DNA of 64,000 bases from Mauremys mutica. Lineage: Eukaryota > Chordata > Testudines > Geoemydidae. A program made the position numbers and the translations under genes. Below the pieces are notes generated by a model that ran no database searches, was not told the DNA's origin, and worked only from the letters and a program-made list of their open reading frames with translations. The stretch spans positions 11,931,501 through 11,995,500 of the forward strand of contig NC_059084.1 in NCBI RefSeq assembly GCF_020497125.1. Direction: 5' to 3'. Below, piece after piece: positions 23,621-63,871 of the stretch (within the stretch, counting starts at the first letter, position 1; the number at the start of each line of letters is the position of its first letter).

Positions 23621-23921
23621 TTATTGCATTCGGTCAGGCTGCAGCTGTTGGGGCTGATATTGAACAAAAGCCGTGGTGTGCGCTGCCGGATTGCTAGCAG
23701 TGATGGGCTGCTGAACTGCGCTCGTGTAGCCGTATCCCACAAACCCAGCAGCAGGAGAGGCGGCGTAGGGGTACTGGTCATAGGCAGCAGTGGTGTACTG
23801 AGTGTAGGCTTGGCTCGCAGAGGTGTAGTCTATGTAGGGAGACGTGATAGACTGCACGGGGGTTGGGATGACCACGCTAGGCTGAACGATAGCTTGAGGG
23901 TAAATATAGTGAGGGGTGAGC
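23621..23921 (-). CDS. RBM38: RBM38 last coding exon and stop
   Basis: The acceptor CTCCACAG ends at 23922. The exon encodes [19 protein letters not shown], then an S/T/Y/A-rich stretch with [19 protein letters not shown], then [15 protein letters not shown] and TAA at 23623-23621. It lies 14.6 kb from exon 3. The FVGY and QLQPDRMQ features separate RBM38 from RBM24, whose tail carries long polyalanine runs. Confidence 0.96.
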
Positions 23922-26900: not shown

Positions 26901-29900
26901 TCATCACACTGAGAGGTGGAAAAAGACCCCTACAATCTAATACATTCCTCTGCGAGGACAGGACAGAGTCCCCTGCAAGATGTTTCATCAGGATTTGTGA
27001 ACAAAAATTAATTGGTTTGTGTTAGTTCCTCTGACCTTGCTTGTACTGGGCACTGTTCAGTACCTACTAGACAGTTCTGTAACTCCACTATGCTGCAGTC
27101 TATATAGAACTGGGGTTGCTGTAAACGCTCCTCCTATCTAATTATTCAGTGCATATTCCTGTTTGCCATTCTGACCATCTCAACATGGCAGAGCCTTTTC
27201 CACATCTTTAGTCCCAGTTCAGGAATATAAGCAAGGGCTCATCTAAGCAGGGTTCTCAGGCCAACACTTCATTTTTTCCTAGCTAGATCCCTGGCTCTGA
27301 ATGTGAATGGCTCATACCACTATTGCAAAGGCCCCCCCACCAACAGCTGCCTCAGGAGCTATAGTTATCAGCAAAGCAATTCAGAAACAGCACTACCCCT
27401 TGAAAGGGGGTGAGGCAGACTTGAGATTATTACCTCAAATCTGTGGAGGGCTAGGAGCAGTCACAAATCCAGCGGTCAACCCACTCCTTGATCTACTCAG
27501 AATATCAGGGTTGGAAGCGACCTCAGGAAGTCTAGTACAGCCTCCTACTCAGCAGGACCAATCCCCAGACAGATTTTTACCCCAGTTCCCTAAATGGTCC
27601 CAAGGATTGAACTCACAACCCTGGGTTTAGCAGGCCAATACTCAAACCACTGAGCTATCCCCCCTTGAAGCATAACCTCATGGCAGTGACATCCATCCAT
27701 GTCTCTATCCATATGGTGTCTCTAGACATTGGCTCTGTCTCTAGACATCTAACTGAGTAGATGAAAACAAGAACCTGCTAGAAATTCCCTGTCTTTTCTC
27801 ATTGGTTTTAATTCAGATCTGAATTAGGGTTAGGATGGAGTTTGAGGCTAAAATCGGGGCTGAAGTGCAAATTCACATCCAACAGTGTTGAAATCTCACA
27901 AGCTCTTGCAAGGTTTCAACTGTACCCAGCTCAGAACCAGGCCCTTTCTAGATCTGAACCTAACCTAGAACCATAAAGGTAGGTTCAGATTGGAAGATCT
28001 GAATCTAACCTAGAGGCAGGGTTCTGGTGCTGGCCCATCTCTGATTTCAAAAAGGGTATTTTTAAAATACATCTCTGTATCAGTGTTAATCTTTCCCAAA
28101 CCCCGTAAAGAATTAAACAGTTGCTCTCCCCTGTACTAGCCTATCTGACAAAGGGAAGAGAGGGTCAGATCATCTAATAGTCTTCTACTGATGAGTCCTT
28201 TAAAAATAAAAAAAAATAAAAAAAAAAAAAAGAGTTTGCTTTCGAAGAAGTGCTCCTGCCAGACAAGAGGGGGGACCTGTAACCAACTCTCTTCCCTACC
28301 CATCCAAGCTATGGTCCTTCTAATAATGCATTCCCAGTCTCTCTAGGAAAAGGGCTTGGTGTGATTTTTAAAAGTGAATGCCCGTAATTGAATAATCCTG
28401 TTACAAGTGCAACAGTCCACACCAAACACCATCCTCTCCCCGCACCTCCAGGTCTTGTGTTTGCACTCACAATTCTATGCACATTTTTGCCCACACATGC
28501 AAATTTGCAAGTGTGCACCTAGAGGCTCTGGGTTGCCCTTTTGAGCATTTGGCCCTAAATATTCTGTGTTAAAAACAGCTCTCTCAAGCACCTAGTAACT
28601 TGCATGCAGAACTCTCGGCCAAGCTGCTGACATCTCCAACTGAGACTTAACTGTCCACACTCCAACATGTAAGCTCACTGAAAGCATAAAGACACAGAAT
28701 GGGATAGAAGCCTTTGAAATGCCTTATGGATGTCTATGGATGACATGAAAATATTTGTCCCCAGACACATCAATTCTCTTGGCTGCATTTCAGACATATT
28801 TCAGGACAAATTTACAAGAGTAGATGCTGGTGTTGCACGTGGAATGTATCCCTGGACAGAAACAGACCAGGAATCATTCAGAACCAACACATGCATGAGA
28901 ACAATCTTTCATACTGCAGAACTGCATGCTATGTGCGTGTGCACAACCTCCACATCTATTTCCTGGCCATTTGGCTGGATGCACGTGCACTTTCCTAAGA
29001 GGAAAAAAGACCCAATCCTGCAAGGCATTGAACCCACAACTCCCAATAACTTTGGTGGGAGCTGAAAATGTTCAATATCTGGCAGGACTGGACTTAAAAA
29101 CACCCCCAAAACCTCAAACATCTTTATTTTCTCTGATCACTTACCTACAGAATACAACAATTATTTTTTTAAATGAGTATTTCTTCAATTGTAGTTGACG
29201 AGATAGATCTATTTGACTGGTTTGACACTAACTTTTGGACTATTTTCTTCCTCTTAGTATTTGCTTCTCTCAAACGGGTCTTAATACTGTTTGTTAGACA
29301 GTGTCCTGAGTAGCATATACTTCTGCACTTCCTTTCCAAAGCCAGAGCCCCAGCCCCAGTCCAGCACATGTACTAATGCATGCTAAACACCTTTTATTAT
29401 GTTCAAAAAAAAAAAAAAAATCACACACAGCAACTCCAGGATCCATTTCTATTTAAAGGGACCACTGGCAGTTTTTAATTGCAGCTAGACATTTCAGTCA
29501 GAGTTTATGTCAATTGGACTTTAATTGGATGAGCAGATAGCAACTCATTTATTGGATTAAAAAACCCACTTACAAACCAAGATAAGGTCAGCTTTGATTA
29601 CTAGCAACTATAAAGAAAACACAACAAAATCAAGTGCAACGTGATGAAGTTATCTGCTGGCTGGGCTTACTTGTCACAAGTTGTATTTTCAGATTTTTAA
29701 GGAAGGCTGTTCATAAGCCTTTTTAAGCTTTGCTGAACACACAATTTGCATTTGATGTCCATCTTTTCTGCACGTAGCAACCATCCATGATCATGGTAAA
29801 AATGGAACAATTTAATTACATTTTAAAGTGGTATTTTAAGATTTTTATTCTCCTGCTGTGGAATTCTGTCATCCAGGTATGACCATGTAATTTTGAAAAA

Positions 29901-32900
29901 TATAGGTCAGACTTTAGGGCCTCCCCAAAAGTTCTGAAAGCCAGAAAAGAACTTCATCCACAATACACCGTGAGATTATAAAAATGTCAAGTGATCAGCA
30001 ATTGTCATCACACATCAAAGTCATCTTGTGACTAGCAACAATATGAACTGCTTCAGGGTATTATGATTAAACACTAGTAGAGGACACAAACACTTGGAGA
30101 ACACAATGAACAATGTGGTCAAACCTAAAATTAGAATCACTGGTGCCTGCTGGAGAGACTCATCAAGGGCTTTGCTTTGTGCCTTTGGCCAAAGGCAAGC
30201 GTGAGATGGCTGGTGATCAGGATGAAGGCGCAAACCCCATGTTCCTAACTATTTGGCACAACGCCACACCTGCCCCAATAGCCAAAATTAAAAGATGAGA
30301 CATGGTTATAGAGCCATCAGAGGAGGACACAGACTTAGCTTTTGATTTTATTCTGCAAAATATAATAAATAAATAATAATAGGATGAATATAGCTTGTTT
30401 GCAATTCAGTTCATGCTGGAAACACTTTATATATTTGAACATTTTAGGGAGGGCTTAAATGTAAGATGCATCTTTACTCTGTTCAATCAAATGTAGCTTC
30501 CAATACATTCAAAACAGGCTTTAAAAACAAAAAACACACAACCCTACACAGACTGTGCTGACTGGGTCATTTGGCCTTTACAAGGCTTACTTTTAAGAAC
30601 TCCAGTTTGTTGGATTCTCCCTGGGAGCGTTTATAGCCACACCCACACCCCCTGTTAGCATCGCTACTGTAGGATGCGGTGCTCAGAATACTGTAGGTTG
30701 GGTTTGTTTTAGGCAGGTAGCTGAGGGCGGCATTCTGAGGGTCATCCAGGAAGGAGGCAAGCCAGCTAGGTGACTAGCCTCTCATGCTGCTAGGGAAGAG
30801 TGCCGACTACATGGCGTGCTGCCCAGGATGCTCTCCCTTCCCAGCCGCGCTCCACAATAGCAAGCGGGCAGGACTATTCTAAACCCTCGCAGTCCCACTG
30901 CCACCAGCCACGCAGCAGGGTTGCCACAGGGCCATTCATAACTCAAGTGGGCTGCACAGATTTAAGAGTAGAGGAGACAGGCTCGGGGGAAGCAGCGAGG
31001 AAGGTGGGTGGCTCTTTCACTCCCACACCCTGCTCAGCGCTAGCTCCCAAAGAAGCCATGAAGTTGGGCTTTGCTTGGTAGAGGGTAGCCCAACTGCTAT
31101 TTTTCACCATCCTCCCCCTCCTCTAGGAACAGCCTTGCTACACAGCCCTTTGTACACAGACCAGAAATAAAAAGGTAGGAGATACAGTGGGCCTCCTGCT
31201 CGACCTTGACAACATCCCTATAAGACAAGCCCCCATCCTATGGGGTAGACAACAGTGCTGCTGAAGCATTTAAAGAATCAGCAGCACGTGCTAAGATCGC
31301 GTCAGAGGCATGAGCCTGCTTCGGAGGTTTAGCACAGAAATGCCAAGTCGCCTATTGCTTGAGAACACAACGTACAGGGCACCTGCAAGATCAGCACATG
31401 AGTGCTACTGGCCGAACAGCCTCCTTATTTCTTGAGGAAAGAAAAAAAACCCAGCCCTTGGCGTTTGCCAACAAGTGCAGGCATAAGACATCTGGCCACT
31501 GGAACTGGGCCTCTATTTTCATTCCGACTGACTGCTCAGCAGCTAAGGGACATGTTTAAAGGATAAATCCCTTTGGGTTCAGTGCGTTGAAAGGTGCTAG
31601 TCTGAGCACCCTGCAGACTGAAGTCATTGTTCTAAGTAGTACTGAAGGCTTCCTTGGCCATCCCATACCCCAGTGCCATCCCCTGGCTCTAGGATGCTAA
31701 TGGGCCTCCTACTTTTAGTAGCAATAGTATTACAGCAGCACCTAGACACCTCCACTGAGATCACCACCCTGCACTAGGTGCTGTATGTAAATCTACCAAA
31801 GGACAGTCCCTGCTTTAAGAGTTTACAGCTTTAAAGACTGTATAATTTCTATTGTACAAATGAGAAATGGAAGACCAAAATATAGGCCCTGGGCCATCAA
31901 GCACTCATGTAAATTGGACTATTCCCAGGGTTAAAGCAAAGCATGTGTGCAAACATTTGCAGGATGGGGGCCTATATGCCTCACTCAGGGCCACACAGGA
32001 AGACTGTTGGAGCTAGGAATTGAACTCACATATCAAGAGTCCCACTTCAGTGGGACAAAATTGTCCCTCCTCTTCCATGCTGAGCTGGGAAAAAAAAACA
32101 ATTAATCTTTGGGGTAAAGCACAGTTCAGATATCATCCTTGAGTCTCTGGTTTCTCTGCTGTGACTGCCAAGAAGGATTCCCAACTTCGGTGGAAATTTT
32201 GTAGGCATCTGTCCACCAGGAATTCGACTTTGACCAGCAACCTCATTCCACATAGGCCACTAGAACAATCTTCAGATGGTAACCACCAATTAGTCTCTAC
32301 TTTTGTGGGTTGGATTGGAATCAGTGACCTTACACCAAACTCCTGAACCCTCCAGTCTCCTACATACAGCTTGTTAAAGTTAGCACTGAGAAAGGAAGCC
32401 TAGGAACGCTCTCTTACTTCAACGTCTTCTGTGGTTATTTTTGCCCTTTCCAAGTGAGATCCAAACAGAGATAGATATTCTACAAATGCTTCAACAATAA
32501 TTCTCTCCTTACATGTATATGATTTGCCTTAAGTGCCCTCTATGTGGCCTTAAAGATTAGCAGGTATTTTATTGTAACTCATTTGCCTTTAACAAAATCA
32601 AGGCACATCTTAGGAACACTTCCTCTGGCCTCCTCCTTTCTGTCTTACACTCTTCCTCCTTAGGTTCAGCAAGAAGATTTACACAGCAGTCTGAGCAAGC
32701 TCAGCATGTCAGTAACTGTTTACTGCTTCCTTGTTGAGATTATGCTGTAACTCTGGGAGAAAACCAGGAAAGGGCTACATGCCAGCATCACTGACAGGGA
32801 TGGGGAAAGGAGTGGAAAACATGCCCACAATAGGACCTGAGGCTATTACTATTGGCCACAGAATTGGCACAAAAGGCTACCAAAACCACTAGAGAGAATG

Positions 32901-35900
32901 AAAAAAAAAAGTGTCAGAGCTGGGTTCAACCAAAGATATCCATGATTTCCTACTTAACCTAATTTTGAAAGGCTAGGCAGTTTAGGGGTGGGAGGAAACA
33001 TTAAACCCATATGGCTCAGCAATACATCATTACTTTATGATGCTGACAAGCTCAAGATGCAACTGCTTCATTATGTTATGACGCAAAAAAAAAAAACCCA
33101 ATACAACCACCCTCTAGAAAATGGATTGTAATAGAACAAAAAACCCTCACTAAGGTCCAAGAAAACAGATCCCACAGAATGCAACAGGTGGAAAAAGAGA
33201 CAAGAGATGCCACCCACACCTGCTCCCAGGATGTACAGCTAGTGCAGAAGTATGAAAGAGGTGACAAACCATAACCACACGTGGTGAGCACATCTCCTAA
33301 CAAAGATCTAATCCTCCTCTCTCAGCTCAACCCACAACATGAGATCAAAACCCAGTTGTGCCAGGCTGAACATGACCACAGCTTTATCCTCTGCATCTTG
33401 CTTCCTCCACACCCAAGAAAACCCCCCAAAGAGACGCTCTATCAGGAGCAGAAATAGTTCTGGACAAGCAGGCTTAAAAATACTCAGGCAACAGAGCTGA
33501 AGAGTGTCTCGACAAAACAAGAATCACATGACAGCGAAGACAAACCCTCTCAAACTTGGAAGTCTCACAATATTGAAGACACCCTGTGTAAATACTACAT
33601 TTGGCCCAGGTGTATTAAATACCAGATCAGAATGGTTGCATTTTGTACCCACTTAGCCCAGATGTAAGTAAGTGTCTACACAAGGTGGGAGGGCTTGGTT
33701 CTTCACTGCTAAAGAGACTGCTCTCACTCACGCTGGTGAGAATCAAGAGTAATGCAACTGAAGCCATTACGTCAGTACTAGCCAGCTGGTTTCTGTAGTG
33801 TAGTGGTTATCATGTTTGCCTCACACGCGAAAAGTCCCCAGTTTGAAACCAGGCAGAAACAGCAGTATGAGACAGGAGACCAGCCCCTACTCTCACATTT
33901 AAGAGTGGGGGCAGAATTTATATTATAGATTAGATAGACTCTTCCAGTGACTTAGTGAAGTAGCTCAGAGTGTAGTGGAATAAAGAATGTGGCTCATGAA
34001 ACAACAGGCCAGACAATGCCTTGTGCTTTGAGCAGTCATTTACCCCCGTGCAAAATAAATACAAGATGCTATCAGATGAGAAGGGCAGTATTTACGCATT
34101 CACTTTGCACTAGTGAAAGCAACCACACAAAATGCAGGGCTATGATGAATTGGGCCCAAGAGAACAGAATGGTGCTCAAGTGCACTCTGAATCTTTGCTC
34201 CTTTCATATGCTCGTCTCAAAAAGGTGGTAAAGCAGTACAGTCTAGGTGTGTATTTACAGGCATTCAGTTCAAGAGGAGCCTGTCTGACTGGCAGTAGTT
34301 TGGCCTGTGCGTCAGCCATGCTTGGGAATTAACAGCTGAAGCCACTTGGATTTGACTATTTCTTTGGAAATCCCCCCAAAAGCTTTCATGTCTGTCTGTG
34401 CCAGTAACAGGTGCTGTGAGAGCCACCCCACAGGAGCCACTTGTGACTGACAGAGCAGCCTGGGGTCTTGCAGCAGGGTGTTTTCTTATGAGTTGTACAA
34501 CAGGAAGCCACCATAGTAAGGAATGTGTGAGACTTTTTAAAACAGCAAAACCACACAGAAGAGAAGAAAGCTTGTTTCTTTTTATTTGCACCCCAATTGA
34601 ACAGCATTAAGGATAACTATCAAGGGACTTTCTTCACTTCCTGGTTGTAGCAGCAGATTGTGAAAGAAACCAAAAAGATTTAACTATTTCAAGGCAAAAG
34701 TGACAGCAGCCGCATGCTGACCTGGAGCAAGCAGGCCCAACACAACTGGATGCAGTGTGCCTCGTTTTCCATTAGCCTCTGCCTTGTGTACAGGAGTGCA
34801 AGCCAATCCACTTTGCATTGAGATAAGTGACTCCACAAGGTGCTGGGCAATGGAGAATCAGGCTCAATAGCTGGCACCAGACCCACTCAGTAGGCCACAT
34901 CCTGCTGCATTAAACTACCTCTGTAATATTCCAACAGTGCAGAAAGCAGCCCTAAAGCCAGCTTGCTCTGCCAAAGGAAGATTCCTCCTTTATAGAGGGC
35001 TCCTTAGGTGGCGCAGAGCTGTAGCAGTGCCTATGCCACACACGGCTGCTGACCAGAGCATGAGGCATGGCTGGGGATAGAGGATGTAGCCAGGGATGCC
35101 CTATGCCCTGTTCTAGTTTATGCCAAATGAAAGGCTGATGCACAGCAGTGCCTAGATCAGAGGGACACAAAGGGTGACTTAAAGCCAGTTGCATACACCA
35201 CACTGCAGCTGCCCCAAATGTTTCTTGTCAAACAAATAATCTACACAGTTGTCCCTCATTGCTTTTTATAAAGTGTCTCAGATGTTCTTGGGAAAAAATT
35301 TTAAAGGGACACTGCAGCGACAAAAACAGCTCCAATTGTTGCCTCACCACATGTTCTGGTCACATGGGTGCAATTTTATGTCTTCAAGTAATCATGCCCA
35401 CAGATAACTGCAGGCACAAATTCATGGAACTCAAGACATCTAGCTTCCCGACTTGCCACAAACAAGATAGCTAATCGTGTCAATTCTACAAACTAAGCCT
35501 GTTAGTTGCAGGAACAATCAGTGGGTGCAAAATTGTGCCCATAGGTTTAGAGTGTCCCTCTCAAAAATTGGGAAAATACTGCTGTGCTTGTGTTATTAAA
35601 ATCTTAGATTAGAATTTGAAAATTCAAAAAAAAAAAAAAATTTAAGTTTGCTTTTCCCCTTTGTGTTGTTTATTTAGTGTCCCTGCTTCAGAGAAGCTGA
35701 TTTAGTTTCACTTTCTGTTCTGTATGCCCTAGCCCACTGCTTCTCAAGCTATCTGATGTGGGGGACTGTCAATTTCCCCCCCATGTGCCAGGAACCGGTG
35801 CCACATCATCCTATTTGATGCTCTTATGAGGAAACTTGCCATGGACCGGCAGCCGATGGCTCATGGACCAGCACCGGTCCGCGGACCACCACTTTGAGAA

Positions 35901-38900
35901 GCACTGCCCTAGCCTAATGCTGCAGCTGCATTTGGGTCCCCAGCAGTGCTGGGAAAGGTTTAAATTTAAAGCTACCAAAAAGAATACCTTTCACAGGTAT
36001 TTGGGGTTTTTAACCTGCATGAAAACACTTCTGTTTGCATCAGTCTGCATTTTGGGCCTTCGCTACTCAGCATTCTCTTCAGCATGAGTCTGAAGTTTTT
36101 CTTTGTTTTTTTTTTTGTTTGTTTTTTTTAAGAACTAGTTCATTGTGTAGCATTTAATAAATTATTCATTAACCACTTAATTGCTGTGTTCTGCGGCAGC
36201 ATCTGAGATGCAGAGGACCATGGCAGCGGTCTCTAAATCCCAGTATTCCATTATTGGAACATCAGCACTTTACGAGGGATGTTTGTGAGTGGCACAGCAT
36301 TGGAAGTGTTTTGCCCCTGTACCAAATATGTAGGTAGCTTGGAAGCAGGTTGCTTATTTATGTAATATTCGTAAGTCACTGAACAGTAGACCGCCAATTA
36401 CCAAAGAAGGTGGGAGATGACTCAATGAAACTTAAAGTGAAACAAACTGGGGCCTAATTCTACAAGAATAATAGATCCAAAAATCCCACTGGTGTTAGAT
36501 GAAGTTTTAGATGATCAAGGAATGCAGGATTAGACCCTACACTGGCTTTTACTTTGAAAAAAGGCAAAAACAGAACTGACAATCAGACTTTGTTGCTCAA
36601 ATGAACACCTGACGCTCTGCTTTGGAAACATGGTACAATTCATGGCACCAAGGTAAACTGTACAACAACTTTTTTTTGCCAACGCAGGTTTCCTGTGATT
36701 AAATCATTGCCAAAGAAGAATGCAGTGAAATTCTTGTTTACTGATGCTTGCAAATGAGATCTATGATCCCCTCCCTCTTCCTCCCGGTCTCTTGGCAACT
36801 GATAAATAATTTGTAGTGCTCATTGTCATGTGTACTAAATGTACCCCCATTGGTTTTAATGATGAAACTGAGGCCTAATAAATAGAACACTAACTGTAGA
36901 TCACAATGAACACGTGTTCAGTCTCTCACTTCTTAATACGTGAAGCTAAAAGGAAGTTATAAAAACCTCTGCAAAAAAGAACCTTCTTTGTTTGCCCCAC
37001 CTATATGGCTGAAATGGCTGGGCAGAGAGTCAGGGACAGGAATGACAAGAGTATGTTTGCATGAGTTAGGGCCTGATCCAAAGCCGACTGCAGTCAGTGG
37101 GAGCTTAGTTTGTTTCACTGTATTATTCCTTCTCTTTACACTTCACATGGGGAGAGTCTTGTTGAGGGCAGTTTTTAAGATCCACGTTAATTATGTGCTT
37201 GTGCACCCTTTAGAAAAGCCTCTAGTGTGCATGTGCCAGAAATACCAAGGTTACTAGTGGTCTCACCGGCTGAGAAAGCTGTTGTATTTCACATGCAAAC
37301 AAAGCTTTAAAAAAAGACAAAACCAAAAAAATACTGTCTACCTGAAACACTTCTGCTCCTCGCACCTCAGACAAAAGAAAGACTCTTCTTTTCACAAGAA
37401 ATGTTACTCCAGTCCTTCCAGCACAGACTTAACTATTTAAGAAACCTAGCGTGTTTCAACAATACACACCCAGCATAGGGTGTGAGCACTATTATGGCAA
37501 CACTGCCTCTTACATCCATACACTGGCTGGAATGATAATACCAAGACAGTTGTGGGCCTATAGGTGTGAGGGGACAGGAATGAAAGAAGGAGACTATGAA
37601 TTAAGCACAGGGAAGGAATAAAATTGTTTTGTTAAATCAAAAAAGAAAAAAAATGTATATTGTCATATAAAGTTACAAAAGGGCAGTGCTCAAGAACTTT
37701 AAGAAAATGGGTTTTTGTTTCGACCATCAAAGAAGTGCACCCACTATCAATATTCACTTTCTGAAATGATGTGAAAAAGAACGGCATCAATCATTAAACA
37801 GTTAAATGAAGGCAGTATGACAGTAGCTATTGTTCTCTGGAAGCACACTTGTATTTTCCAGAGCAGCTGCCAGATCCTATTAGATGTATAAAAAGGAGGA
37901 CTTCTCGGACTGAGTCGGGATGGTATAAGCTATTGAAAACAGCAGACAAAAGCCCACTTTTGCAGACCATTCAAGCCCTGTATAACATCTGTCCAGAATC
38001 AATTTTTGACCTAATGTTACTTTCATTAAGTATTAGACTTTGTTTCCAATTCAGTTTGTTTCCCTGACTAAAATTGTACCCCAAGTGTGATTCCATGGGA
38101 AACAAGATGGAGAGAGCAGATCTTATGCAAAAAACATGCTATGGAACATGTTATTTTCTTGACTGTTTTGACACCTTAAATATTATGACAAAAAAATACA
38201 TGCCACTTATTTGGAGTCTTCTACATTCTTTGAATTGCCAAGAAGCAAGAAAATGTATTACAAAACAAGTCTCTCGTGATTATGAAGACTGATTTGCTGA
38301 TGCTGAAAAGAGGATCTTTAGGAGTCATATGAAAACTGAAAATTAAAAAAAAAAATGCTACACAACTTTTCCAATGCTCGCCTAAAAGAAAAGTACTATT
38401 GAACTACTGCTGCTGAAGCTGTACTCCTCTTTATGACTTGGAGTTCTCACACATTTTAAAAATGAGGAAGTTGATTCAAGCATTGGACTTCAAACTGACT
38501 TTGAAGTTAACTACATAAAAAATACTTCCACTTACCCATATGGTCGCTGAATAAAGGCTGGATGTAGCTGCTGCACACCTATGGTAAAACCTGAAAAAGT
38601 ATGGGGAAAACATTAGTATTAAAACAAAAAGCATTCACTGTAGTGTGTAGGTATTATAATGCATACATGCACAACTACAAGTGTGTGTGTGTGTGTGTGT
38701 GAGAGAGAGTGAGAGAGAGAACTCCCTAACAGAATACTTTTTAGAGGTACAATTATTTTAATATACTTATGTATATACACACACACACGTAATTTTGGCA
38801 TAGAAAGAAGGTTCAAGTAAGGAAACTGGGAGCAGAGAAAGCTGAATTACATAGTGCACTAAACAGGCAAATCTGAGGGGCCAGTGTGGCTCTTCAGATC

Positions 38901-40509
38901 AATTACCTCCCATTTTGCAACTAAGGCTTCTTCAAACAGAGAGAGCTGAGAACTCACCAGTTTGAATACTCCTTGGTTTTGCTCCCAGATATGCCAGGTT
39001 CACATTTGCTTTTCTGCCATCAATGATGGGGTTGGGATCTTTGCACGCTCTCTCAGCTGCAGCTCTATCTGCCATGGTCACCTGGAGTTAAGTACAACCT
39101 GTTTTGTAGCAATGGTTCTCCACAAAACCTACACCGAGTGGGGGCTTGATGAAGTTTCGTGAGGAGTTAAATTTGCTTTCTTGAAATCTCAGTTTGTGGG
39201 GGTGGGAGAAGACTCAGAGGGACAAGAATGGGTCCTGTGCACTGGGTTGAAAACAGAAAGCACCAACAAGTTTCTCTCCTGGTGATCTGCCAGCAATTTT
39301 TTTTCCACTCTAGCACACACAAGTTGGTAGAGTAACTTAACCCCTCCCCCCCCAACACTCCCTAAAGCAGAGGCTGCTCAAGGAAACTTGAAGCAAAGGA
39401 CACACTCATGAATCATACGGAAGATGCAGAAATTGAGGGCTGCACAGAATGTGCTTCACTGAAGCGCTCTAAAGAAACAAGCCAGCAACGCGTGGGGGAA
39501 GGGGTGTTGAAATGAACTACAGAACAGCCAGCACCGGAGGTTCTTATCCCAATGCTCTCAATCAAGGGCCTTTGTCTTGGGCCGGGGGGGGGGGGGGAGA
39601 GTTATTCCCTGCCTCACCCCCTCACCCCAGCTCTCCTGCGTTCAGCAGTCTGTCCTGCAGGAAGAAAAATAGATCTGAAGAAGTAGGAAACAACTTTCTA
39701 GCAGAGGGTGGCTCTGTACAGAAGAGACCTCCAAACCACCCAGCCCTGTGTACCCCCCAAGCTAGCCAGCTGGTGCAAGAGCAGAGCAAAGCAATGAAGG
39801 GGGAGGCCTTGCCCATGGAGAGCGTGGGGGGATACAGAGGGATTCTCCCCTGCGTTAGAGAGAATCCGGGGGAAGAAAGGGCAGCAAGGAACCACTCTTG
39901 ACAACTAGAGGAGGCTAATGGGATACAGTGGGGAGGGGAGGACGGTGTTTCGCTGGGGTAGGGGCTCTCTTCCCTGGGACGGGGGGGACCTCAGGCTCAC
40001 AGGCTCTTTACCCGATACAAAAGCAAGTTACTATCACAACCACCCCAGCTTCAGAGACCGGGCTCCTCTGGGACATGCCTGAGCTGGGCTACCAGGACTA
40101 GGGTGACCAGACGGCCCGATTTTATGGGGACAATCGGGATTTGGGGGTATTTTTCTCATATAGGTGCCTATTACCCCCACCCCCTGTCCTGATTTTTCAC
40201 ATTTGCTGTCTGGTCACCCTAGCCAGGGCCAACTCGAGGAAGCGAACAGGGCACCAGCCCCGGCTACCGCCCGCCTTTCACTCCGCGCCCATCACCGCGG
40301 CACCTGCCTGGGCGGGGATTGGGGGGGGTCGTCGCACTTACAAAACCATATCCCCGGGATTTGCCCGTCTGCCGGTCGGTGATCACCACCGCTTCCTCGA
40401 TGTCCCCGAACACCTCGAAGTACTTCCTCAGGGAGGAGTCGGTGGTGTGGTAGGGCAGCCCCCCGACGAAGATCTTGGTGAAGGTAGTGTCCTTCTGCAC
40501 GGTGTGCAT
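23621..40509 (-). CDS. RBM38: RBM38 (RNPC1), RRM RNA-binding protein, four coding exons
   Basis: The coding sequence is complement(join(23621..23921, 38536..38590, 38958..39081, 40342..40509)), 648 nt giving 215 residues. All junctions are GT-AG and in phase (0, 1, 2). One RRM occupies about residues 11-88, with RNP2 IFVGGL at 13-18 and RNP1 RGYGFVTM at 52-59. The tail is rich in Y, P, Q and A and ends QLQPDRMQ. The family members bind AU/U-rich elements in mRNAs such as p21 and p53, and act in cell-cycle and differentiation control. RBM38 is preferred over its paralogue RBM24 because of RSIQTG after the RRM (RBM24 has an RIMQPG-type sequence), SFVGY-like FVGYGY and [15 protein letters not shown]. 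The ATG at 40509 has G at -3; no in-frame ATG lies upstream before a stop near 40593, so the longer human N-terminus is absent or non-ATG. The gene looks intact. Confidence 0.96.
24210..25262 (+). mobile_element. Decayed L2-like LINE (RT remnant and 3' tail)
   Basis: Around 24395-24530 one frame reads [11 protein letters not shown] and then [11 protein letters not shown], recognisable as a reverse transcriptase PQGSxLGPLL and YADDTQ pair with the catalytic YADD changed to YAGD. C/T-rich sequence follows. The end (25185-25260) has GCAAGCTCTAAGGAGTAAGG and CACAGCACCAGGCACAATGG, as in L2/L3-type tails. It lies antisense in RBM38 intron 3 and has no coding ability left. Confidence 0.65.
26775..26880. 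repeat. Repeat with CTTAGGAGCCTAAG palindromes
   Basis: GACTTAGGAGCATAAGTCC and AACTTAGGAGCCTAAGTG recur within about 60 bases, separated by a TTTTCCAAAGTCTCC spacer. It resembles an old amniote hairpin repeat and lies in RBM38 intron 3. Confidence 0.5.
27500..27664 (-). mobile_element. Turtle-type tRNA-derived SINE with CR1-like tail
   Basis: Read on the minus strand it opens GGGGATAGCTCAGTGGTTTG (A box) and carries GTTGTGAGTTCAATCC (B box). It then passes into a CR1-like body (GGTTGGAAGCGACC in plus orientation) ending at an AGAATAT tail. A tRNA head with a CR1-like 3' end is the design of the tortoise (Cry I) SINEs. It lies in RBM38 intron 3, same strand as the gene. Confidence 0.85.
31725..31860 (-). 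repeat. L2/L3-type LINE tail fragment
   Basis: CACTAGGTGCTGTATGTAAA, GGACAGTCCCTGCTTTAAGA and GTTTACAGCTTTAAAGAC form the reverse complement of an L2/L3 tail. It lies in RBM38 intron 3. Confidence 0.55.
33789..33861 (+). pseudogene. tRNA-Val(CAC) relic
   Basis: A 73-base cloverleaf sequence with a perfect 7-bp acceptor stem (GTTTCTG with CAGAAAC), A box TAGTGTAGTGG, anticodon loop CTCACAC (anticodon CAC) and discriminator A. The T arm reads CCCAG-TTTGAAA-CCAGG in place of the expected CCCGG-TTCGAAA-CCGGG, so two stem pairs and the B box are damaged, each change sitting at a former CpG. No TTTT terminator follows. It lies in RBM38 intron 3, antisense to it. A functional gene is unlikely. Confidence 0.85.
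35735..35906. mobile_element. Short hAT-type MITE, 172 bp, perfect duplication
   Basis: The ends are CACTGCTTCTCAAGC and the inverse TTTGAGAAGCACTG. CCCTAGCC occurs on both sides (35727-35734 and 35907-35914). It lies in RBM38 intron 3. Confidence 0.9.
38536..38590 (-). CDS. RBM38: RBM38 coding exon 3 (55 nt)
   Basis: A short exon encoding [19 protein letters not shown] across its junctions. The acceptor TTTTTCAG ends at 38591 and the donor GTAAGT starts at 38535. It enters with one base of the codon already used and leaves with two, exactly fitting exons 2 and 4. The GVQQLHP core is shared by RBM24 and RBM38. Confidence 0.95.
38591..38957 (-). other. RBM38 intron 2 with compound microsatellite
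   Basis: A 367-base intron. It contains a (GT)10 run followed by GA-rich repeats at 38681-38720 and a short CA run near 38776-38787. Nothing else is recognised. Confidence 0.8.
38681..38720. repeat. (GT)n(GA)n compound microsatellite
   Basis: Ten GT units at 38681-38700 run directly into GA-rich repeats to 38720. It sits in RBM38 intron 2, about 90 bases from exon 3. Confidence 0.95.
38958..39081 (-). CDS. RBM38: RBM38 coding exon 2 (RRM second half)
   Basis: The acceptor CTCCAG ends at 39082 and the donor GTGAGT starts at 38957. The 124 nt encode residues 57-97 plus one base, beginning [18 protein letters not shown] and ending [12 protein letters not shown]. This is the most conserved exon of the RBM24/RBM38 family. 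The SIQTG ending is of RBM38 type. Confidence 0.97.
40071..40090. promoter_or_regulatory. Candidate p53-family response element in RBM38 intron 1
   Basis: Two decamers abut with no spacer: GGACATGCCT fits RRRCWWGYYY in all ten places, and GAGCTGGGCT fits eight of ten. The site is about 250 bases inside intron 1. RBM38 is an established p53 target, so position and match are suggestive. Function is inferred. Confidence 0.4.
40099..40221. mobile_element. hAT-type MITE (TAGGGTGACCAGA family) in RBM38 intron 1
   Basis: The same ends as 6570-6693. The flanks ACCAGGAC and GCCAGGGC agree in six of eight. It begins nine bases beyond the candidate p53 site and lies about 120 bases from exon 1. Confidence 0.9.
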
Positions 40510-41000
40510 GGCGCTGCGGGCGCGGGGCGGCGGCCGCTGCAAAAAGCATCCAAAGTGCCACGGGCGGCCGGAAGCAAACGCCTCAGGGGCTCAGAAGCGG
40601 CGTGAGACGCCCTGGGCCGGGGTCATCCTCCGCCTCACCACAGGCAGCTGGGGGCAGAGCGAGGCGGGGCCGCCCCCACGCAGCAGCAGCAGGCGGCGGC
40701 AGCTGTCGCTTTGTCCCCCATGCACCGGGAACCGCTGCCTGCGAAGAGCCCTGGCTCCAGCCCCGCCTGTGCAATGACCTCCCGCCGGGTGCCGGGGAAC
40801 AGAGGCGGCCGCTGCCTGCCTGCCGCCGCGCCGGGCTTTGTACCATCCTCTCCCTCCGCCCTTCCACCCTCCCCCGCCGGGCTCCGGCCCCGCCTCCCCA
40901 CGGGAGACAAACCCCGGAGGCGCAAAGGCTCCCGGGGCTTGTAGTTCCCACCCGCGGCGGGGAGCAGGGGCTGCCATGAAGCAGCCGCCGCTGAAATAAC
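40240..41000. promoter_or_regulatory. CpG island at the RBM38 5' end
   Basis: This is the densest CpG stretch of the window and covers RBM38 exon 1, the start of intron 1 and about 500 bases upstream. It fits a TATA-less CpG-island promoter firing toward lower coordinates. No transcription start can be placed from sequence alone. Long open frames on both strands here are by-products of high GC. Confidence 0.8.
40342..40509 (-). CDS. RBM38: RBM38 coding exon 1 (RRM first half)
   Basis: This exon encodes residues 1-56, starting [10 protein letters not shown] and ending SRGYGF. The donor GTAAGT reads at 40341-40336 on the minus strand. RNP2 (IFVGGL) lies at residues 13-18. The intron cuts inside RNP1, between F56 and V57. 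The exon sits in the CpG island. A TTG 11 codons upstream is the only near-cognate alternative start seen nearby. Confidence 0.97.
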
Positions 41001-49376: not shown

Positions 49377-49382
49377 TTTATT
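49377..49382 (-). terminator. Polyadenylation signal of the SPEM-like gene
   Basis: AATAAA on the minus strand, about 162 bases after the stop codon, giving a short 3' UTR. Confidence 0.6.
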
Positions 49383-49543: not shown

Positions 49544-50754
49544 TCAATTGCTAATGTTGGGTGGTGCTGCTTCAGAACCTCCTCTTGTTGTGTCTGCCAG
49601 GAGAAGTGGGTTGTGGATCAGGTTGGCACCATCACTGCTTCCTGCCAGCGTCTCATAGTCTTGGCTCAACTGCAGTGTGCTAGCTTGGTGTTTTCTCTCC
49701 CAGATGCTCTTGCGTTGTGTGTGGGTGTCACAGATAATCTGCCCCGTTGGGCCTTGGTTGGAACTTTCCCAGGTGTGGCCAACAGATACCCGGTTTGCCA
49801 ATGTGTCCTTGACTAAGATGGTGCGAGATGCTGAAAAGGGGTGGGTGGACCGTTCAGCGGTGTGCTCTGGGCCGAGAGGCGGTGGGTTGACAAGATAAAT
49901 GTAGACTTCGGCTCGCTGGACCAGTGGCAAGCTGTGGTGAAATTCAGTCCCAGGATGGTGCTCAGGACTCCTCTGATGATATGCCTGGGTCACTGAGTGG
50001 TGGTAATCATTGTTGAGACAGGTTCTGGACTCTGGGGTGGGAGCCAGGGCAGAGTACACTACCCGCTTAGGGCCTGGGAAGATTGGGCTGGGTATGAAGT
50101 GTGCCTCATTGACATGGGGGTGAACGTGCACAGCAGAGCACTCTGAACGGAGGCTGATGGGTTCCTCTGTGTTTGGAACAGCAGATTGATGCAGGAAACT
50201 CTGCCGTCGTGTAGTTTCTCCTGCACTGTCCAAGCCGAGCTCTTTATCCCTAGTGACCCCTCTTGGGTTGTGTATGTAAATGCCCCAGTCAGCCAGGCTG
50301 CCTCTGGTCTTGGCAACCTGCTCTGGGGAGCTGGTGTGAAAACGCACTGATGACACAGTGGATCCGGCTGGGCACACTGGCTGAGGACTGTCACTGTCTG
50401 AGTGACGGGAGCTGTACTGGCTCGCCCAGTCACGGTAACGTTGACCTGGGCTAGGCCGATTGTTCACCTGGTGGTGTTGCTGCTGGTGCCCATACCAACT
50501 GGCTTTCTCATCATCAGTGTCTTGATGGGTTGGCCAGGAACCATGGTAACCTTTGTCCTTCCTGTGACCCTGGGGACAGTGGCTTTTCAGCCCATTTAGG
50601 TTGTTCATGTTCACGGTTAGCCTCAGAGGATCCAGAGTGCAGTGGAAGTGCAACATGGAGATATTTCTCTGGCCTTTGGTCAGCACCAGCTTCTTCCGGC
50701 CGCTGGATTTCTTGCTGCAGGAAATGGCTATTAGTGCCTTGATCCATCTGTATG
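49544..50754 (-). CDS. SPEM-like exon 3 (main coding exon)
   Basis: The acceptor is TGAAG after a long pyrimidine tract (50755-50785), chosen because it alone restores phase with exon 2; a nearby TACAG three codons on does not. The frame stays open for 403 codons to TGA at 49546-49544, far beyond chance. The product is rich in H, S, P and T, is likely disordered and cytoplasmic, and carries all conserved SPEM boxes after the membrane span. Confidence 0.88.
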
Positions 50755-53303
50755 CTTCAGGGGAATGAAGAGGAAGAATAAAAAATGAAGAAATGAATTA
50801 ACAGAAATACAGTGTCCATGTGATGGCTAACCTATCATAGTACATTCATGTAATCCCTGGCCAGACAATGTCTGGTTCCTTTCTTTCCTCTTCCCCAGAC
50901 CTGCCTGCACAGTGACAGGGGAAGAGACAGAGAGGGAAGGTAAAGGACAGAAACAGAAAGAGAGAAAGGAAAGGAGAGTGAAAGAGATACAAACAGGCTA
51001 CATCTACACTAAAGATTTTGTTCTCAAATTTCCCACTGCTGCTAATCCTGGTGCAGCTTTGCTGGTGTTAGTAATGGTGAGTGGGAGCCCTAGTGTAGAC
51101 AGGGTTCCTGTAGACACCAACATTTAGAGCACTGTTTCATCTAATAAGAACTGGCCAAAAACAGTTTAGAACCAAAAAAATTGAACATTTCCTCATCTTC
51201 CCCAATTTACCTTTGGTGGTGAAATAATGGAAGTCTCTCTTCAGAAACTGACACAGGTAGATCCAGATCTGAAAGAAGGGAAGAAGGAGAGAAAACCAGT
51301 TGCCATTGTGGTTAGCGGCTTCTCTCTAGTACCGATACTTCTGCCTCCCTGAATTCCTGACCCTTTTCAAGTCAATGGGAGTTTCATCATTGACCTCAAT
51401 AGGATCAGGATATCACCTCTGATCCTAGAGTGGAGCAGCAAATGGTTTTCCCATTCCATGAGAATTTTCAAGATTTTGAAGCATTTTCCCATTTTGAACT
51501 GGGACAAAAAGTCAATTTCAAATTTTTTCACAAACCAAAAATCTGAAAAAAAAAATTTGGTTTGGGTCAATCAAAACTTTTCATTTTGGTTCTGGCTTTT
51601 TTTAAACTATAATTTAACTTATATTTTGAAATTAAAATACAACTTTCCATTTCAAAAATGTCAGTTCATTGTAATCAATTATTTCCTACAAACAGCTTCA
51701 GTTCCAATGAATTGGCATTTTTTGATGGAAAAACATTAGTTAAAAAATTCTTGACCTAGTTGTACCTGACCCACAGGTGTAAGAGCCTTCAAAAAATTCA
51801 GTATCCACTGAGCAAACTTGTAATGCGATCACACCTGAAATTGCAGGGAAAACTCACTAGGAATTGCCCACCCATTCTTGCTGCAAAACAAAAAGACAAA
51901 ACCCCCACAATCTTCAAAATGCCTTGGCCCTAGTATCACATGGGGGATATTTGGGCAGTCATAACTCTATGGACCTTATTAACAGCAATATAACAGAACT
52001 GTATTCAGAATAGGAATATATCTGTAATAGTGGATCAGACACCCATATCTATCCTGTATCCCACACCACTGCTCCACTTAATCTGATATTTCCCTCTCCT
52101 CCAACCTGCTATGTTAAATCAGGCCACAGGTCCAATTGGTCTAGAATCCCAGTTCCTGACAGATCAGATCAGATCACTAGTCCAGCTAATTTGATCTCTC
52201 TCGTCCAGAGTGACCGATGCCTTTAGAAGAAAGTGTTAAAATCCCTAATGCAGCTAGCCAACTGTGGAATGCCATTCAGGGGGAGGAAATGCCCTTTAGC
52301 TCCCTGCTGCAGGAGATCAGCATAACAGCTAATTACCCTTCTTTCAGGAGGCATAACTACAAATGTTATTAGCCATAAAGTTATCTAGCCTCCTTTTTCA
52401 AACACAACAAATGAACAGGGATCATTCACTGCAGAGGGGCAGCCAGCTGTGGGGTGGATTGTGGCAGCTGACCAGGGATGACCACTTTAGGATAGGAAAT
52501 AAAGACTATATGCAATTGGGACTGAGAGAGGAGAGAATCAGCAGTCACTGAGACTGGAATTTGAGCAAGACACAATGATTAAACTCTTGTCTTTCACATA
52601 AATTGCCATATGATCTTAGATGATCATAAGTGATCAGAAGACCTTTTCTGTCTTATCCAGAAGGTTCAATCAGCACAGCACCACCTAGTGCCATATCAGG
52701 GCAGTAGATTAGTTGTGACTCAGGGAAGAATGCTCACTCTGAGTCACTCACAACAATCTATGCGGCACAGCTCCCCCTAGCACCAAGCTATCACTACGGA
52801 ATGGCAAAAAAAGCCCAGTGAATCACCCACTGCAATACAGTGCCCCCTAATGTCACAATGTGGCAGTGGCATCAATACTGACTCAGAGGAGAGAATTCTC
52901 CCTAATTAGTAACCCACGCCACTCCCTCCAACACAGCACTGCTTACTACTTTGTTTTTAAGCTATGAGATAAGCACCCAGAGCATGGAATGATCCCTAAA
53001 ATATTGTTCTTAATTCCAGGAGATAAATAAAATGCTTGAACACAGGTCAGTACTGATTCAGGAGAGGAGCACCTTGTTAGGGCCCTGTGGTTAGTAATGA
53101 CTCAAAGAGAAGTGTCTTGGGCCTAATAGAAGCAGCAACCCTCCCCACCCACAACATTGCTTGCTTACCAGGCGGACAATTTTGATGGCATTATCCAGTA
53201 AGGCAAGGAGCCCCAACAAGAGTAGGATGGTAGCTAGGACATTCTGGTAGGACTCACTGATGGAAAGACAGCTATTGGGAATCTTCTCTCCTAGGAGAAC
53301 CAT
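49544..53303 (-). CDS. SPEM1/SPEM2-family spermatid maturation protein, three exons
   Basis: The model is complement(join(49544..50754, 51211..51268, 53169..53303)), 1404 nt, 467 residues, GT-AG and in phase throughout. Residues 21-43 form one leucine-rich membrane span (ATILLLLGLLALLDNAIKIV). Then come HFHCTLDPLRLTV (about 100-112), DTDDEK (143-148), VYIYLVNPPP (348-357) and GQIICDTHTQRKSIWERK (402-419). These match in order the span, the HCTxDPxxxTV box, TDDEK, YVYPVNPPP and GRIVYDxxxxRR landmarks I know from mammalian SPEM1, with the HCILDP box also in SPEM2. SPEM1 acts in cytoplasm removal from spermatids in mouse. The ATG has A at -3 and G at +4, with an in-frame stop upstream. AATAAA lies about 165 bases past the stop. 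Whether it is the SPEM1 or SPEM2 orthologue, or another paralogue, is open; the length is nearer SPEM2 (about 500) than SPEM1 (about 310). Confidence 0.85.
50755..51210 (-). other. SPEM-like intron 2
   Basis: A 456-base intron. It holds a purine-rich run (50920-50990, plus strand) and a small MITE at 50995-51118. Confidence 0.7.
50995..51118. mobile_element. Small MITE in SPEM-like intron 2
   Basis: CAGGCTACATCTACACTAAA at left and CCCTAGTGTAGACAGGG plus TGTAGACACC at right form imperfect inverted ends about 120 bp apart. Confidence 0.55.
51211..51268 (-). CDS. SPEM-like exon 2 (58 nt)
   Basis: Acceptor TTTCAG ends at 51269 and donor GTAAAT starts at 51210. It encodes IWIYLCQFLKRDFHYFTTK plus one base. 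It continues the post-membrane amphipathic stretch that SPEM1 has in the same place (W/F/Y-rich). It is too short to stand alone; support comes from phase, splice sites and position. Confidence 0.75.
51269..53168 (-). other. SPEM-like intron 1
   Basis: A 1900-base intron, AT-rich. I see no coding sequence in it; short tandem-like phrases around CACxxCCCCTA appear at 52680-52870, but no repeat family is recognised. Confidence 0.65.
53169..53303 (-). CDS. SPEM-like exon 1 (N-terminus and membrane span)
   Basis: Encodes residues 1-45, from MVLLGEKIPNSCLS to AIKIVRL, with the membrane segment. Donor GTAAGC starts at 53168 in phase 0. An in-frame TAA lies nine codons upstream of the ATG, so this is probably the true start. 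The layout (about 20 residues, then one span) is that of SPEM proteins. Confidence 0.85.
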
Positions 53304-58872: not shown

Positions 58873-59343
58873 GGCATGGTCTACACTAGGACTTTAATTC
58901 GAATTTAGCAGCGTTAATTCGAACTAACCGCTCAACCGTCCACACCAGGAAGCCATTTAATTCGAACTAGAGGGCTCTTTAGTTCGAATTCGGTACTCCA
59001 CCCCGACAGGTGGAGTAACGCTAAATTCGACATGGCTAGCTCGAATTAGGCTAGGTGTGGATGCAAATCGAACTTAATAGCTCCGGGAGCTATCCCACAG
59101 TGCACCACTCTGTTGACGCTCTGGGCAGCAGTCCGAGCTTCGATGCTCTGAGCAGCCACACAGGAAACGACCCGGGAAAATTTGAATTCATTTTCCTGTC
59201 TGGGCACTTTGAATCTGACGTCCTGGCTGGACATCAGGGCGAGCTCCGCAGCACCTGCAACGATGCAGAGCTCTCCAGCAGAGGAGTTCATGTTATCTGT
59301 GAATAGAAAGAGGGACCCAGCATAGACTGACTGGGAACTCTTC

Positions 59344-62974: not shown

Positions 62975-63348
62975 TGCTCCCTGGTATTTGAAGAGTTCCT
63001 TGTCGCTGTCCCAGGCGCCTGTATAGGGCTTCATGAGCAAGTGCATTAGCGGGCAGGCTGGGTCCCCGAGGATGACTATAGGCATCTACACATCCACAAC
63101 AGTTATTTCGTGGTCCGGGAAGAAACTACCTTCCTGCAGGAGTCTGAGCAGCCCACAGTTCCTGAAAACACACGCATCATGAACCTTGCCCGGCCACCCG
63201 ACGTTGATGTTTGTAAAACGTCCCCTATGGTCCCCCAGTGCTTGCAGCACCATTGAAAAGTAGCCCAATTTCTCATCAGCTGACTGTGGAAGACGTGGAC
63301 GATAAAGTGCGAGGAGGAGAAAGCGGCGATGATCGCAGCGGGCTCCAT
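62975..63348 (-). pseudogene. Harbinger DDE transposase remnant
   Basis: A likely original start MEPAAIIAAFSSS (63348) is followed at once, in another frame, by the nuclease part GYFSMVLQALGDHRGRF and WPGKVHDACVFRNCGL. The HTH region and the first catalytic D are gone. The second D (in HDA) remains. A TAG at 63088-63086 cuts the frame, after which GDPACPLMHLLMKPYTG and KELF still read to about 62975. The third acidic residue (E) is missing. It cannot be active. Confidence 0.8.
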
Positions 63349-63871
63349 GCTTGCAGTGCTGTGGCGTCCGCGCTGTCACTGACCAGAAAAATGCACGAAC
63401 AGATTGCCCGCAGGCGCTTTCAAGGAGGTAGGGAGGGAGGTTGTGATTGACGGTTCAATGACGACACTTACCCCAAACCACCCTCGACACATTTCTCCCC
63501 CCAGCAGGCATTGGGGGCTCTACCCAGCATTCCAATGGGCAGCGGGGACTGCGGGAACTGTGGGATAGCTTCCCACAGTGCACCGCTTCCAAAGTCGACG
63601 CTGGCCCCGTGAATGTGGACTCAGAAATTCGAATTAGTGTATTTAGTATGGATACACAAATTCGACTTCATAAGGTCGAATCCACAAATTCGAACTAAGT
63701 TGATTCGAAATAGTCTTGTAGTGTAGACAAGGCCTGAGTAATCTGGAAGTAGGACTAATACAACAGACAATCAGAATAATAAATTGCCTTAGAAGAAAGA
63801 ACAAGCAGATTTGTTATCTTCATCTGGTTACATCCTTTTAGTCCATGAATTAAGAACAACACAATCTCAGG

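What the first reader, a model, noticed from the sequence alone, without database searches (positions are those of the whole stretch)
49544..53303. A SPEM-family spermatid gene next to RBM38 in a turtle-like genome
Three exons join in phase into a 467-residue single-pass protein with, in order, the SPEM membrane span, the HCTLDP box, DTDDEK, VYIYLVNPPP and a GQIICDTHTQRK end box. SPEM genes are known to me from mammals in a cluster near FGF11/CHRNB1 (human 17p13), not beside RBM38. A copy here means either an ancient separate paralogue lost or unrecognised elsewhere, or a moved gene. The last exon stays open for 403 codons, so it is under selection or very recent.
Basis: partly seen in the sequence, partly recalled or inferred. 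Interest (0 to 1): 0.88.

Follow-up and report, generated by a model that had tools for sequence, protein, structure and literature searches.

The report
Unnamed reptile sperm-maturation gene beside RBM38
This is a real gene, kept across turtles, alligators and lizards, that belongs to the SPEM family needed for finishing sperm in mice; it is a separate old relative of SPEM1, because the same turtle also has a likely SPEM1 at the usual place.

Summary
Three minus-strand exons (53303-53169, 51268-51211, 50754-49544) join in phase into 467 residues. Two searches gave 21 homologues: four turtle clusters (98-80% identity), alligator (59%), 13 named squamates, three unnamed. Named ones read 'uncharacterized' or 'hypothetical', except one called a collagen. 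Membership is supported by Pfam Spem1 (27.3 bits, cut-off 27) and by profile comparison with 12 eutherian and two monotreme SPEM1 (E 2.9e-12, 5e-14). Of the claimed boxes, membrane span, HCTLDP, DTDDEK and VYIYLVNPPP hold; the GQIICDTHTQRK 'end box' does not. The gene lies between RAE1 and RBM38 on their strand, SPO11 beyond; no close second copy was found. In the same genome, between NLGN2 and TMEM102, I found an unannotated SPEM-like gene with the same 58-nt exon 2 and a SPEM1-like end: the likely true SPEM1. So the window gene is best read as a separate old paralogue, not a moved SPEM1. Likely role, inferred: membrane-anchored scaffold in elongating spermatids helping clear cytoplasm; expression and function are untested. 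New member of a known kind.

The parts
53169..53303 (-). exon 1, codons 1-45: N-terminus and most of the membrane helix (ATG at 53303)
   Evidence: Met shared by 16 of 16 aligned rows; A1-profile hit E 6.2e-21 to this frame (A1 contains the window protein)
53178..53246 (-). hydrophobic membrane-span core, residues about 20-42
   Evidence: 19-residue hydropathy maximum 2.35 at residue 31; AlphaFold helix 17-80, mean pLDDT 86-91 for residues 21-50 (on P0001)
51211..51268 (-). exon 2, 58 nt, phase 0 to phase 1 (IWIYLCQFLKRDFHYFTTK)
   Evidence: splice sites; A1-profile hit E 1.3e-4 (A1 contains the window protein); same 58 nt and phases in the second turtle SPEM gene; like position in eutherian SPEM1 inferred from intron read-through proteins
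49544..50754 (-). exon 3, residues 65-467 and stop; predicted disordered basic tail
   Evidence: eutherian SPEM1 profile hits this frame at E 1.5e-6 and the monotreme profile at 3.2e-5 among 2198 window frames; pLDDT under 50 for 392 of 467 residues of P0001
50627..50650 (-). HFHCTLDP box (SPEM1 HLRCTMDP)
   Evidence: inside the hhalign match to eutherian and monotreme SPEM1
50504..50521 (-). DTDDEK box (identical letters in human and platypus SPEM1)
50339..50347 (-). VRF triplet, possibly matching SPEM1 IRF / platypus VRF
   Evidence: by eye; not found by the profile alignment of the C-terminal half
49877..49906 (-). VYIYLVNPPP box (SPEM1 AYVYPVNPPP)
   Evidence: C-terminal half profile match E 5.6e-6 to 12 eutherian SPEM1 and 2.6e-3 to two monotremes; 7 reversed or column-shuffled controls gave E 0.054-0.82
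49691..49717 (-). QRKSIWERK box, most constant part of the C-terminus among reptile rows; no SPEM1 counterpart shown
49377..49382 (-). AATAAA polyadenylation signal 161 nt after the stop
23624..40530 (-). RBM38, downstream neighbour on the same strand (matched stretches 40530-40336, 39081-38956, 38594-38421 (weak), 23920-23624)
   Evidence: recalled human query; RRM_1 in Pfam for 40590-40264

Best explanation
It is a protein-coding gene of the SPEM family, distinct from SPEM1, lying between RAE1 and RBM38 in this turtle, with full-length homologues in alligator and lizards. The protein is a single-pass membrane protein with a short N-terminus, one helix and a long basic tail predicted to be disordered (sequence and prediction). 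Most likely it is made in elongating spermatids and its tail works as a scaffold, as proposed for mouse SPEM1 through UBQLN1 and RANBP17 at the manchette, handing unwanted proteins to degradation while surplus cytoplasm is stripped from the sperm head and neck (inferred from the mammalian relatives). In the same genome a second gene between NLGN2 and TMEM102, modelled here, is the likely SPEM1 orthologue. The window gene is therefore an old intron-bearing duplicate, not SPEM1 moved.
For: Intact gene model; in the own genome only its three exons match below E 0.1, next E 0.126. 21 homologues, 17 of them covering 100% of the query; those 17 plus the window form one group whose order follows turtles+crocodilian and squamate groups where resolved. 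Pfam Spem1 above cut-off. Eutherian and monotreme SPEM1 profiles rank exon 3 first among 2198 window frames (E 1.5e-6, 3.2e-5). hhalign to SPEM1 E 2.9e-12 and 5e-14, each half matching on its own. Smith-Waterman z 14.5 to platypus and 11.9 to human SPEM1, against at most 3.0 in 18 control pairs. Exon 2 of 58 nt in both turtle genes and like exon borders in eutherian SPEM1. SPO11-RAE1-gene-RBM38 on one strand. Second gene in the NLGN2-TMEM102 interval. SPEM1 and SPEM2 phenotypes and partners from passages of PMC10904452, PMC5260884, PMC8812575.
Against: No expression data were available. Pfam scores are weak: 27.3 bits here and 28.5 for Mauremys against a cut-off of 27, 19 in alligator, no Spem1 hit in Pelodiscus, Podarcis or Anolis; exon 3 alone has no Pfam hit. 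The C-terminal match is limited to one box. The second turtle gene aligns to mammalian SPEM1 but not to the window protein (z 0.8), is not picked by the reptile profile, has no Pfam hit, has a non-classic exon 1 donor (GTGGGC) and was pieced together by me. Genome searches with platypus SPEM1 (best E 0.5) and with the Pfam model recovered neither turtle gene, and the search with the window protein missed the second one. The tree tool warns that the branches joining the reptile and mammal groups are long and that such joins may be false.
Confidence: 0.74

Rival explanations
1. Moved gene: this is SPEM1 itself, relocated from the NLGN2-TMEM102 interval to RAE1-RBM38 in reptiles (or the reverse move in mammals), with no second copy.
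For: It matches mammalian SPEM1 better than the second turtle gene does (z 11.9 against 7.7 to human SPEM1), keeps DTDDEK, and its Chelonia homologue was the only named reptile protein in the human SPEM1 search (E 0.97).
Against: The same genome has a SPEM1-like gene in the canonical interval: exon 1 ranked first by the monotreme profile (E 4.3e-4 among 703 frames; eutherian profile also first, but E 0.16), the 58-nt exon 2, and VYIYPV and DWVYR-before-stop motifs once each in 50 kb, against 0.01 each per shuffle, the patterns having been chosen after seeing them.
Confidence: 0.12
2. It is the reptile counterpart of SPEM2 or SPEM3 rather than an extra lineage.
For: SPEM2 and SPEM3 are the other family members (PMC10904452 passages); a marginal alignment to recalled human SPEM2 (z 3.8, 2 of 300 shuffles as high).
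Against: It is far closer to SPEM1 of human and platypus (z 11.9, 14.5) than to SPEM2, while platypus SPEM1-like and human SPEM1 both match SPEM2 strongly (z 26.2, 16.5), which suggests that SPEM2 arose within the mammalian cluster. SPEM3 was not tested.
Confidence: 0.1
3. A conserved reptile membrane protein with no role in sperm; the SPEM likeness marks descent only.
For: No expression evidence here; no CRE site or half-site and one RFX half-site in 1 kb upstream; no paper in the library holds any of six locus names of its homologues.
Against: The mammalian members are testis-enriched, and SPEM1 and SPEM2 are needed for spermiogenesis in mice (PMC10904452 passages); the boxes shared with SPEM1 are kept.
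Confidence: 0.15

Closest known systems
SPEM1 (spermatid maturation protein 1; human P0022, platypus P0118)
   Same: Short N-terminus, one membrane helix, RCxxDP box, DTDDEK, VYxYxVNPPP box; like exon borders, inferred from read-through proteins.
   Different: 467 against 309 (human) residues; lies at RAE1-RBM38; lacks the WVYR C-terminus; has a reptile QRKSIWERK box.
Second turtle SPEM gene modelled here (C584:275970-272367, minus)
   Same: Same exon count, 58-nt exon 2, same intron phases, VYIYPV box.
   Different: 299 residues; sits between NLGN2 and TMEM102; has the SPEM1-like WVYR end; lacks DTDDEK; no direct pairwise similarity to the window protein (z 0.8).
SPEM2 (C17orf74)
   Same: Family member at 17p13.1 with 3 exons, needed for cytoplasm shedding in mice (PMC10904452 passages).
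   Different: Only marginal alignment to the recalled human sequence. The paper reports no orthologue in fly, zebrafish or chicken and suggests it is mammalian.

Membership tests
SPEM family (Pfam PF15670 Spem1) | Pfam score above the curated cut-off | tested here: met
   Window protein 27.3 bits (cut-off 27). Of six reptile proteins that I scanned two pass (window, Mauremys 28.5); alligator 19 bits; Pelodiscus, Podarcis and Anolis no Spem1 hit. The database's own tags put the domain on three of 19 hits, all turtle clusters.
SPEM family (Pfam PF15670 Spem1) | Profile similarity over the membrane helix and RCxxDP/DTDDEK region | tested here: met
   E 2.9e-12 and 5e-14; 5 column-shuffled controls of the N-half E 0.21-0.76
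SPEM family (Pfam PF15670 Spem1) | Three coding exons, with a short second exon after the membrane helix | tested here: met
   Mammalian borders inferred only: of 16 proteins looked at, P0120 and P0088 show the exon 1 end and P0024 the exon 3 start; the rest are uninformative or unclear. Three exons for SPEM2 from PMC10904452.
SPEM family (Pfam PF15670 Spem1) | VYxYxVNPPP box in the tail | tested here: met
   E 5.6e-6 against 12 eutherian SPEM1, 2.6e-3 against two monotremes
SPEM family (Pfam PF15670 Spem1) | Testis / haploid germ-cell expression | not testable with these tools
   no transcriptome at hand
SPEM1 orthologue | Position between NLGN2 and TMEM102/FGF11 | tested here: not met
   The window gene lies between RAE1 and RBM38; another SPEM-like gene lies in the NLGN2-TMEM102 interval. 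The position of human SPEM1 between NLGN2 and TMEM102 is recalled; 17p13.1 for SPEM2 is from PMC10904452.
SPEM1 orthologue | WVYR C-terminal box | tested here: not met
   Absent by eye from all 16 rows of A1; no DWVYR-like motif before a stop in 144 kb around the gene; present in the second turtle gene

The most novel reading that the evidence does not exclude
A fourth SPEM lineage, already present in the amniote ancestor, was lost in mammals, birds and snakes and kept in turtles, crocodilians and lizards. There it tunes how much cytoplasm stays on sperm, which would fit turtles, whose stored epididymal sperm carry very large lipid-filled droplets beside the midpiece and posterior head.
Probability: 0.25. 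Interest if true: 0.65.

Novelty: new member of a known kind. Interest (0 to 1): 0.5.

Why it matters
The SPEM family is described in print as three members, and the SPEM2 paper, after finding no orthologue in fly, zebrafish or chicken, suggests that SPEM2 is mammalian (PMC10904452 passages). A reptile member, plus a likely turtle SPEM1 at the canonical place, puts the family's origin back to at least the amniote ancestor (inference). It gives a natural comparison for which parts of the tail bind UBQLN1 and RANBP17, and it gives reptile researchers a candidate gene for the control of sperm cytoplasm in species that store sperm for long periods.

Tried and rejected
'Recent or decaying gene': rejected by full-length homologues in turtles, alligator and lizards. 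'Chance open frame': rejected. 'Processed copy': rejected, since it has introns. 'Upstream start exon': TCCTAG before GAG at 53291 looks like an acceptor, but the ATG at 53303 is shared by all 16 aligned rows. 'GQIICDTHTQRK end box': not supported. A first exon 3 start for the second turtle gene had no AG acceptor and was replaced by one with a pyrimidine-rich CACAG acceptor. Promoter motifs: nothing convincing. Solved structures: none related (one hit, E 1). Structure prediction: only the membrane helix is confident, so no fold search was made. PCK1 was sought beside RBM38 and not found in 144 kb.

Rows dropped: alignment A1 and the tree leave out P0016-P0019 (partial models; A1 holds 15 of the 19 hits plus the window, the tree 17 of 21 homologues plus the window). 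The eutherian profile A2 holds 12 that I chose of 100 mammal-type hits.

Print: the searches found no account of a reptile SPEM gene. SPEM1 / spermatid maturation / SPEM2: 410 papers, 40 listed. Six locus names: 0 papers. SPEM1 + reptile: 4 papers, of which I opened one (PMC8812575, passages; no reptile SPEM gene in those). Two of SPEM1/UBQLN1/RANBP17: 24 papers, 20 listed. Two of SPEM1/2/3: 16 papers, 15 listed. Two wider searches list 10 of 6,199 and 10 of 1,085 papers, with no occurrence of 'spermatid maturation protein 1' or SPEM1 in those listed. Passages of four papers were seen in all (PMC10904452, PMC5260884, PMC8812575, PMC4633597). The library holds open-licence papers only. Not done: dN/dS (no turtle coding DNA beyond this genome), expression, a rooted tree (no non-amniote SPEM in hand), synteny in lizards or alligator, SPEM3.
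Full report
OBSERVATION. On the minus strand, exon 1 (53303-53169, 135 nt), exon 2 (51268-51211, 58 nt) and exon 3 (50754-49544, 1211 nt) join into 1404 nt encoding 467 residues and a stop. Introns are GT-AG in phases 0 and 1. Exon 3 lies in a 417-codon stop-free frame; the longest such frame in 40 Markov-1 simulated windows was 222, mean 175. AATAAA follows 161 nt after the stop. In the turtle's own 2.48-Gb genome only these three exons match below E 0.1; the next place has E 0.126. That search also missed the second gene described below, so it shows only that there is no close copy.

CONSERVATION. Two protein searches over 5.8 billion sequences gave 21 different proteins (19, 20). They are four turtle clusters (Mauremys 98%, Gopherus 92%, Chelonia 89%, Pelodiscus 80%), Alligator (59%), 13 named squamates (38-45%) and three unnamed. 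Seventeen cover 100% of the query; the three unnamed and Sphaerodactylus cover 81-94%. None has a functional name except Varanus, called 'Collagen alpha-1(XVIII) chain'. No bird, snake, mammal, amphibian or fish is named in these lists; that is not proof of absence, because the search needs shared 5-residue words, limits candidate length, shows one name per cluster, and scored only the 7996 candidates sharing most words. A tree of 18 reptile rows (window plus 17 of the 21) with nine other rows, on 448 of 797 columns, gives one reptile group (SH-aLRT 100) whose inner order, where resolved, matches turtles+alligator, geckos, Podarcis+Rhineura (support 80), Elgaria+Varanus, agamids and Anolis+Phrynosoma (5 of 24 inner branches open). 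The species order and the dates are recalled. Inheritance therefore looks vertical since before the turtle-lizard split.

FAMILY. The joined protein passes Pfam Spem1 at 27.3 bits (cut-off 27); exon 3 alone does not. Of five other reptile proteins scanned, Mauremys has 28.5, alligator 19, and Pelodiscus, Podarcis and Anolis have no Spem1 hit. The human SPEM1 search returned 101 proteins: SPEM1 of placental mammals, platypus and echidna, unnamed fragments, and one named reptile, the Chelonia homologue of the window gene (E 0.97). Profile-profile comparison of 16 reptile rows (window included) gave E 2.9e-12 with 12 eutherian SPEM1 and 5e-14 with two monotremes. Split in halves, the N-half gives 2.5e-13 and 7.5e-14, and the C-half 5.6e-6 and 2.6e-3, through the VYxYxVNPPP box alone; seven reversed or shuffled C-half controls gave 0.054 to 0.82, five N-half controls 0.21 to 0.76. 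Among 2198 open frames of the window, the eutherian and monotreme profiles rank exon 3 first (E 1.5e-6 and 3.2e-5). Smith-Waterman z: window-platypus 14.5, window-human SPEM1 11.9, window-recalled SPEM2 3.8; the highest of 18 control pairs was 3.0. Intron read-through proteins place the SPEM1 exon borders of placental mammals near residues 49 (P0120, P0088) and 69 (P0024), leaving a second exon of about 19 residues, as here; the other 13 of 16 looked at do not settle it.

LOCATION. On this contig, reading the minus strand, the order is SPO11, RAE1, the SPEM gene, RBM38. The gene starts 17 kb after the last RAE1 exon and ends 9 kb before the first RBM38 match. The human order SPO11-RAE1-RBM38 is recalled.

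A SECOND SPEM GENE. FGF11 lies on contig C584. I read 50 kb beside it, of which 12.5 kb read N, and found TMEM102 (265284-267740) and NLGN2 (287538-305105) on the same strand. tblastn of SPEM proteins (human, platypus and echidna SPEM1, recalled SPEM2, window protein) into this stretch gave nothing at E 1. The monotreme profile picked one of 703 open frames at E 4.3e-4, between those two genes and on the right strand; the eutherian profile and a joint profile ranked the same frame first, but only at E 0.16 and 0.46, and the reptile profile did not pick it. Reading on, I found a 58-nt exon 2 with a GTAAGT donor and an exon 3 with VYIYPV and an end MQDWVYRPIKE like human NWVYRSLTGR. Both motifs occur once in the 50 kb, against 0.01 each per shuffle of that DNA; the patterns were set after seeing them. 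The 299-residue model scores z 11.6 to platypus, 7.7 to human and 6.4 to mouse SPEM1, but 0.8 to the window protein, and has no Pfam hit. Because I chose its exons by likeness, its z values are flattered; the exon 1 hit and the location were not chosen. A 5-kb N block (280001-285000) in the interval was not examined, so SPEM2 or SPEM3 could hide there. Genome-wide searches with platypus SPEM1 and with the Pfam model found neither turtle gene, so such searches are insensitive here.

MEANING. With a SPEM1-like gene at the canonical place, the window gene is best read as a paralogue copied with its introns. It predates the turtle-lizard split. Whether it also predates the reptile-mammal split cannot be said without an outgroup: the tree is unrooted, the second turtle gene and SPEM2 sit on long branches, and the tool warns about the long branches joining reptiles and mammals.

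MECHANISM. Shown: one confident helix (17-80) and pLDDT under 50 for 392 of 467 residues in the 98% identical Mauremys protein; basic tail, pI about 9.1. Inferred: N-terminus outside, tail in the cytoplasm. From passages read: mice lacking Spem1 keep cytoplasm on the head and neck and are infertile; SPEM1 binds UBQLN1 and RANBP17 at the manchette and may be a scaffold to the proteasome; Spem2 loss is similar (PMC10904452; PMC5260884; PMC8812575, which also says that the exact role of SPEM1 is unknown). The step from these to the turtle protein is inference. Turtle epididymal sperm hold large lipid-filled droplets beside the midpiece and posterior head (PMC4633597, passages), which makes cytoplasm control a sensible thing to test; no data link them.

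NOVELTY. Members of the reptile family sit unnamed in databases, and Pfam Spem1 is precomputed on three turtle clusters. I found no paper on it (open-licence papers, capped lists). The SPEM2 paper speaks of three members and suggests SPEM2 is mammalian. I call this a new member of a known kind: a reptile SPEM paralogue, with a likely turtle SPEM1 as a by-product.

Noticed in passing
G000 contig C584:275970-272367 (minus), locus L030; between NLGN2 and TMEM102: Unannotated turtle SPEM1 candidate, three exons (126 nt, 58 nt, 716 nt with stop), 299 residues, ending in a SPEM1-like DWVYR box; missed by Pfam and by the genome search with platypus SPEM1.
   Followed up: partly
P0118, P0119 (monotreme SPEM1-like) against recalled human SPEM2: The platypus protein matches both human SPEM1 (z 50.6) and recalled SPEM2 (z 26.2) strongly, sharing PNPSWxPxxHSPxPS with SPEM2 by eye: it may resemble the single ancestor of SPEM1 and SPEM2.
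   Followed up: no
63086-63454 (-) and the 59-63 kb region: DDE_Tnp_4 transposase fragment, so a Harbinger-type element probably lies just upstream of the SPEM gene; neighbouring frames at 59331-59822 and 61599-62093 have no Pfam hit.
   Followed up: no
8000-8750: GC-rich island (64-65% against 35-50% around it) downstream of RBM38 with open frames on both strands and no Pfam hit: possible promoter of an unidentified gene.
   Followed up: no
33789-33861 (+): tRNA-like match (44.1 bits) between RBM38 exons; gene or tRNA-derived repeat not decided.
   Followed up: no
P0015 (Varanus komodoensis): The homologue is deposited as 'Collagen alpha-1(XVIII) chain', a probable misannotation.
   Followed up: no
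Hit lists: No snake or bird is named among 21 homologues of the window gene, and I saw no marsupial named among 101 SPEM1 hits, although many such genomes are public (recalled); possible lineage losses, not tested.
   Followed up: no
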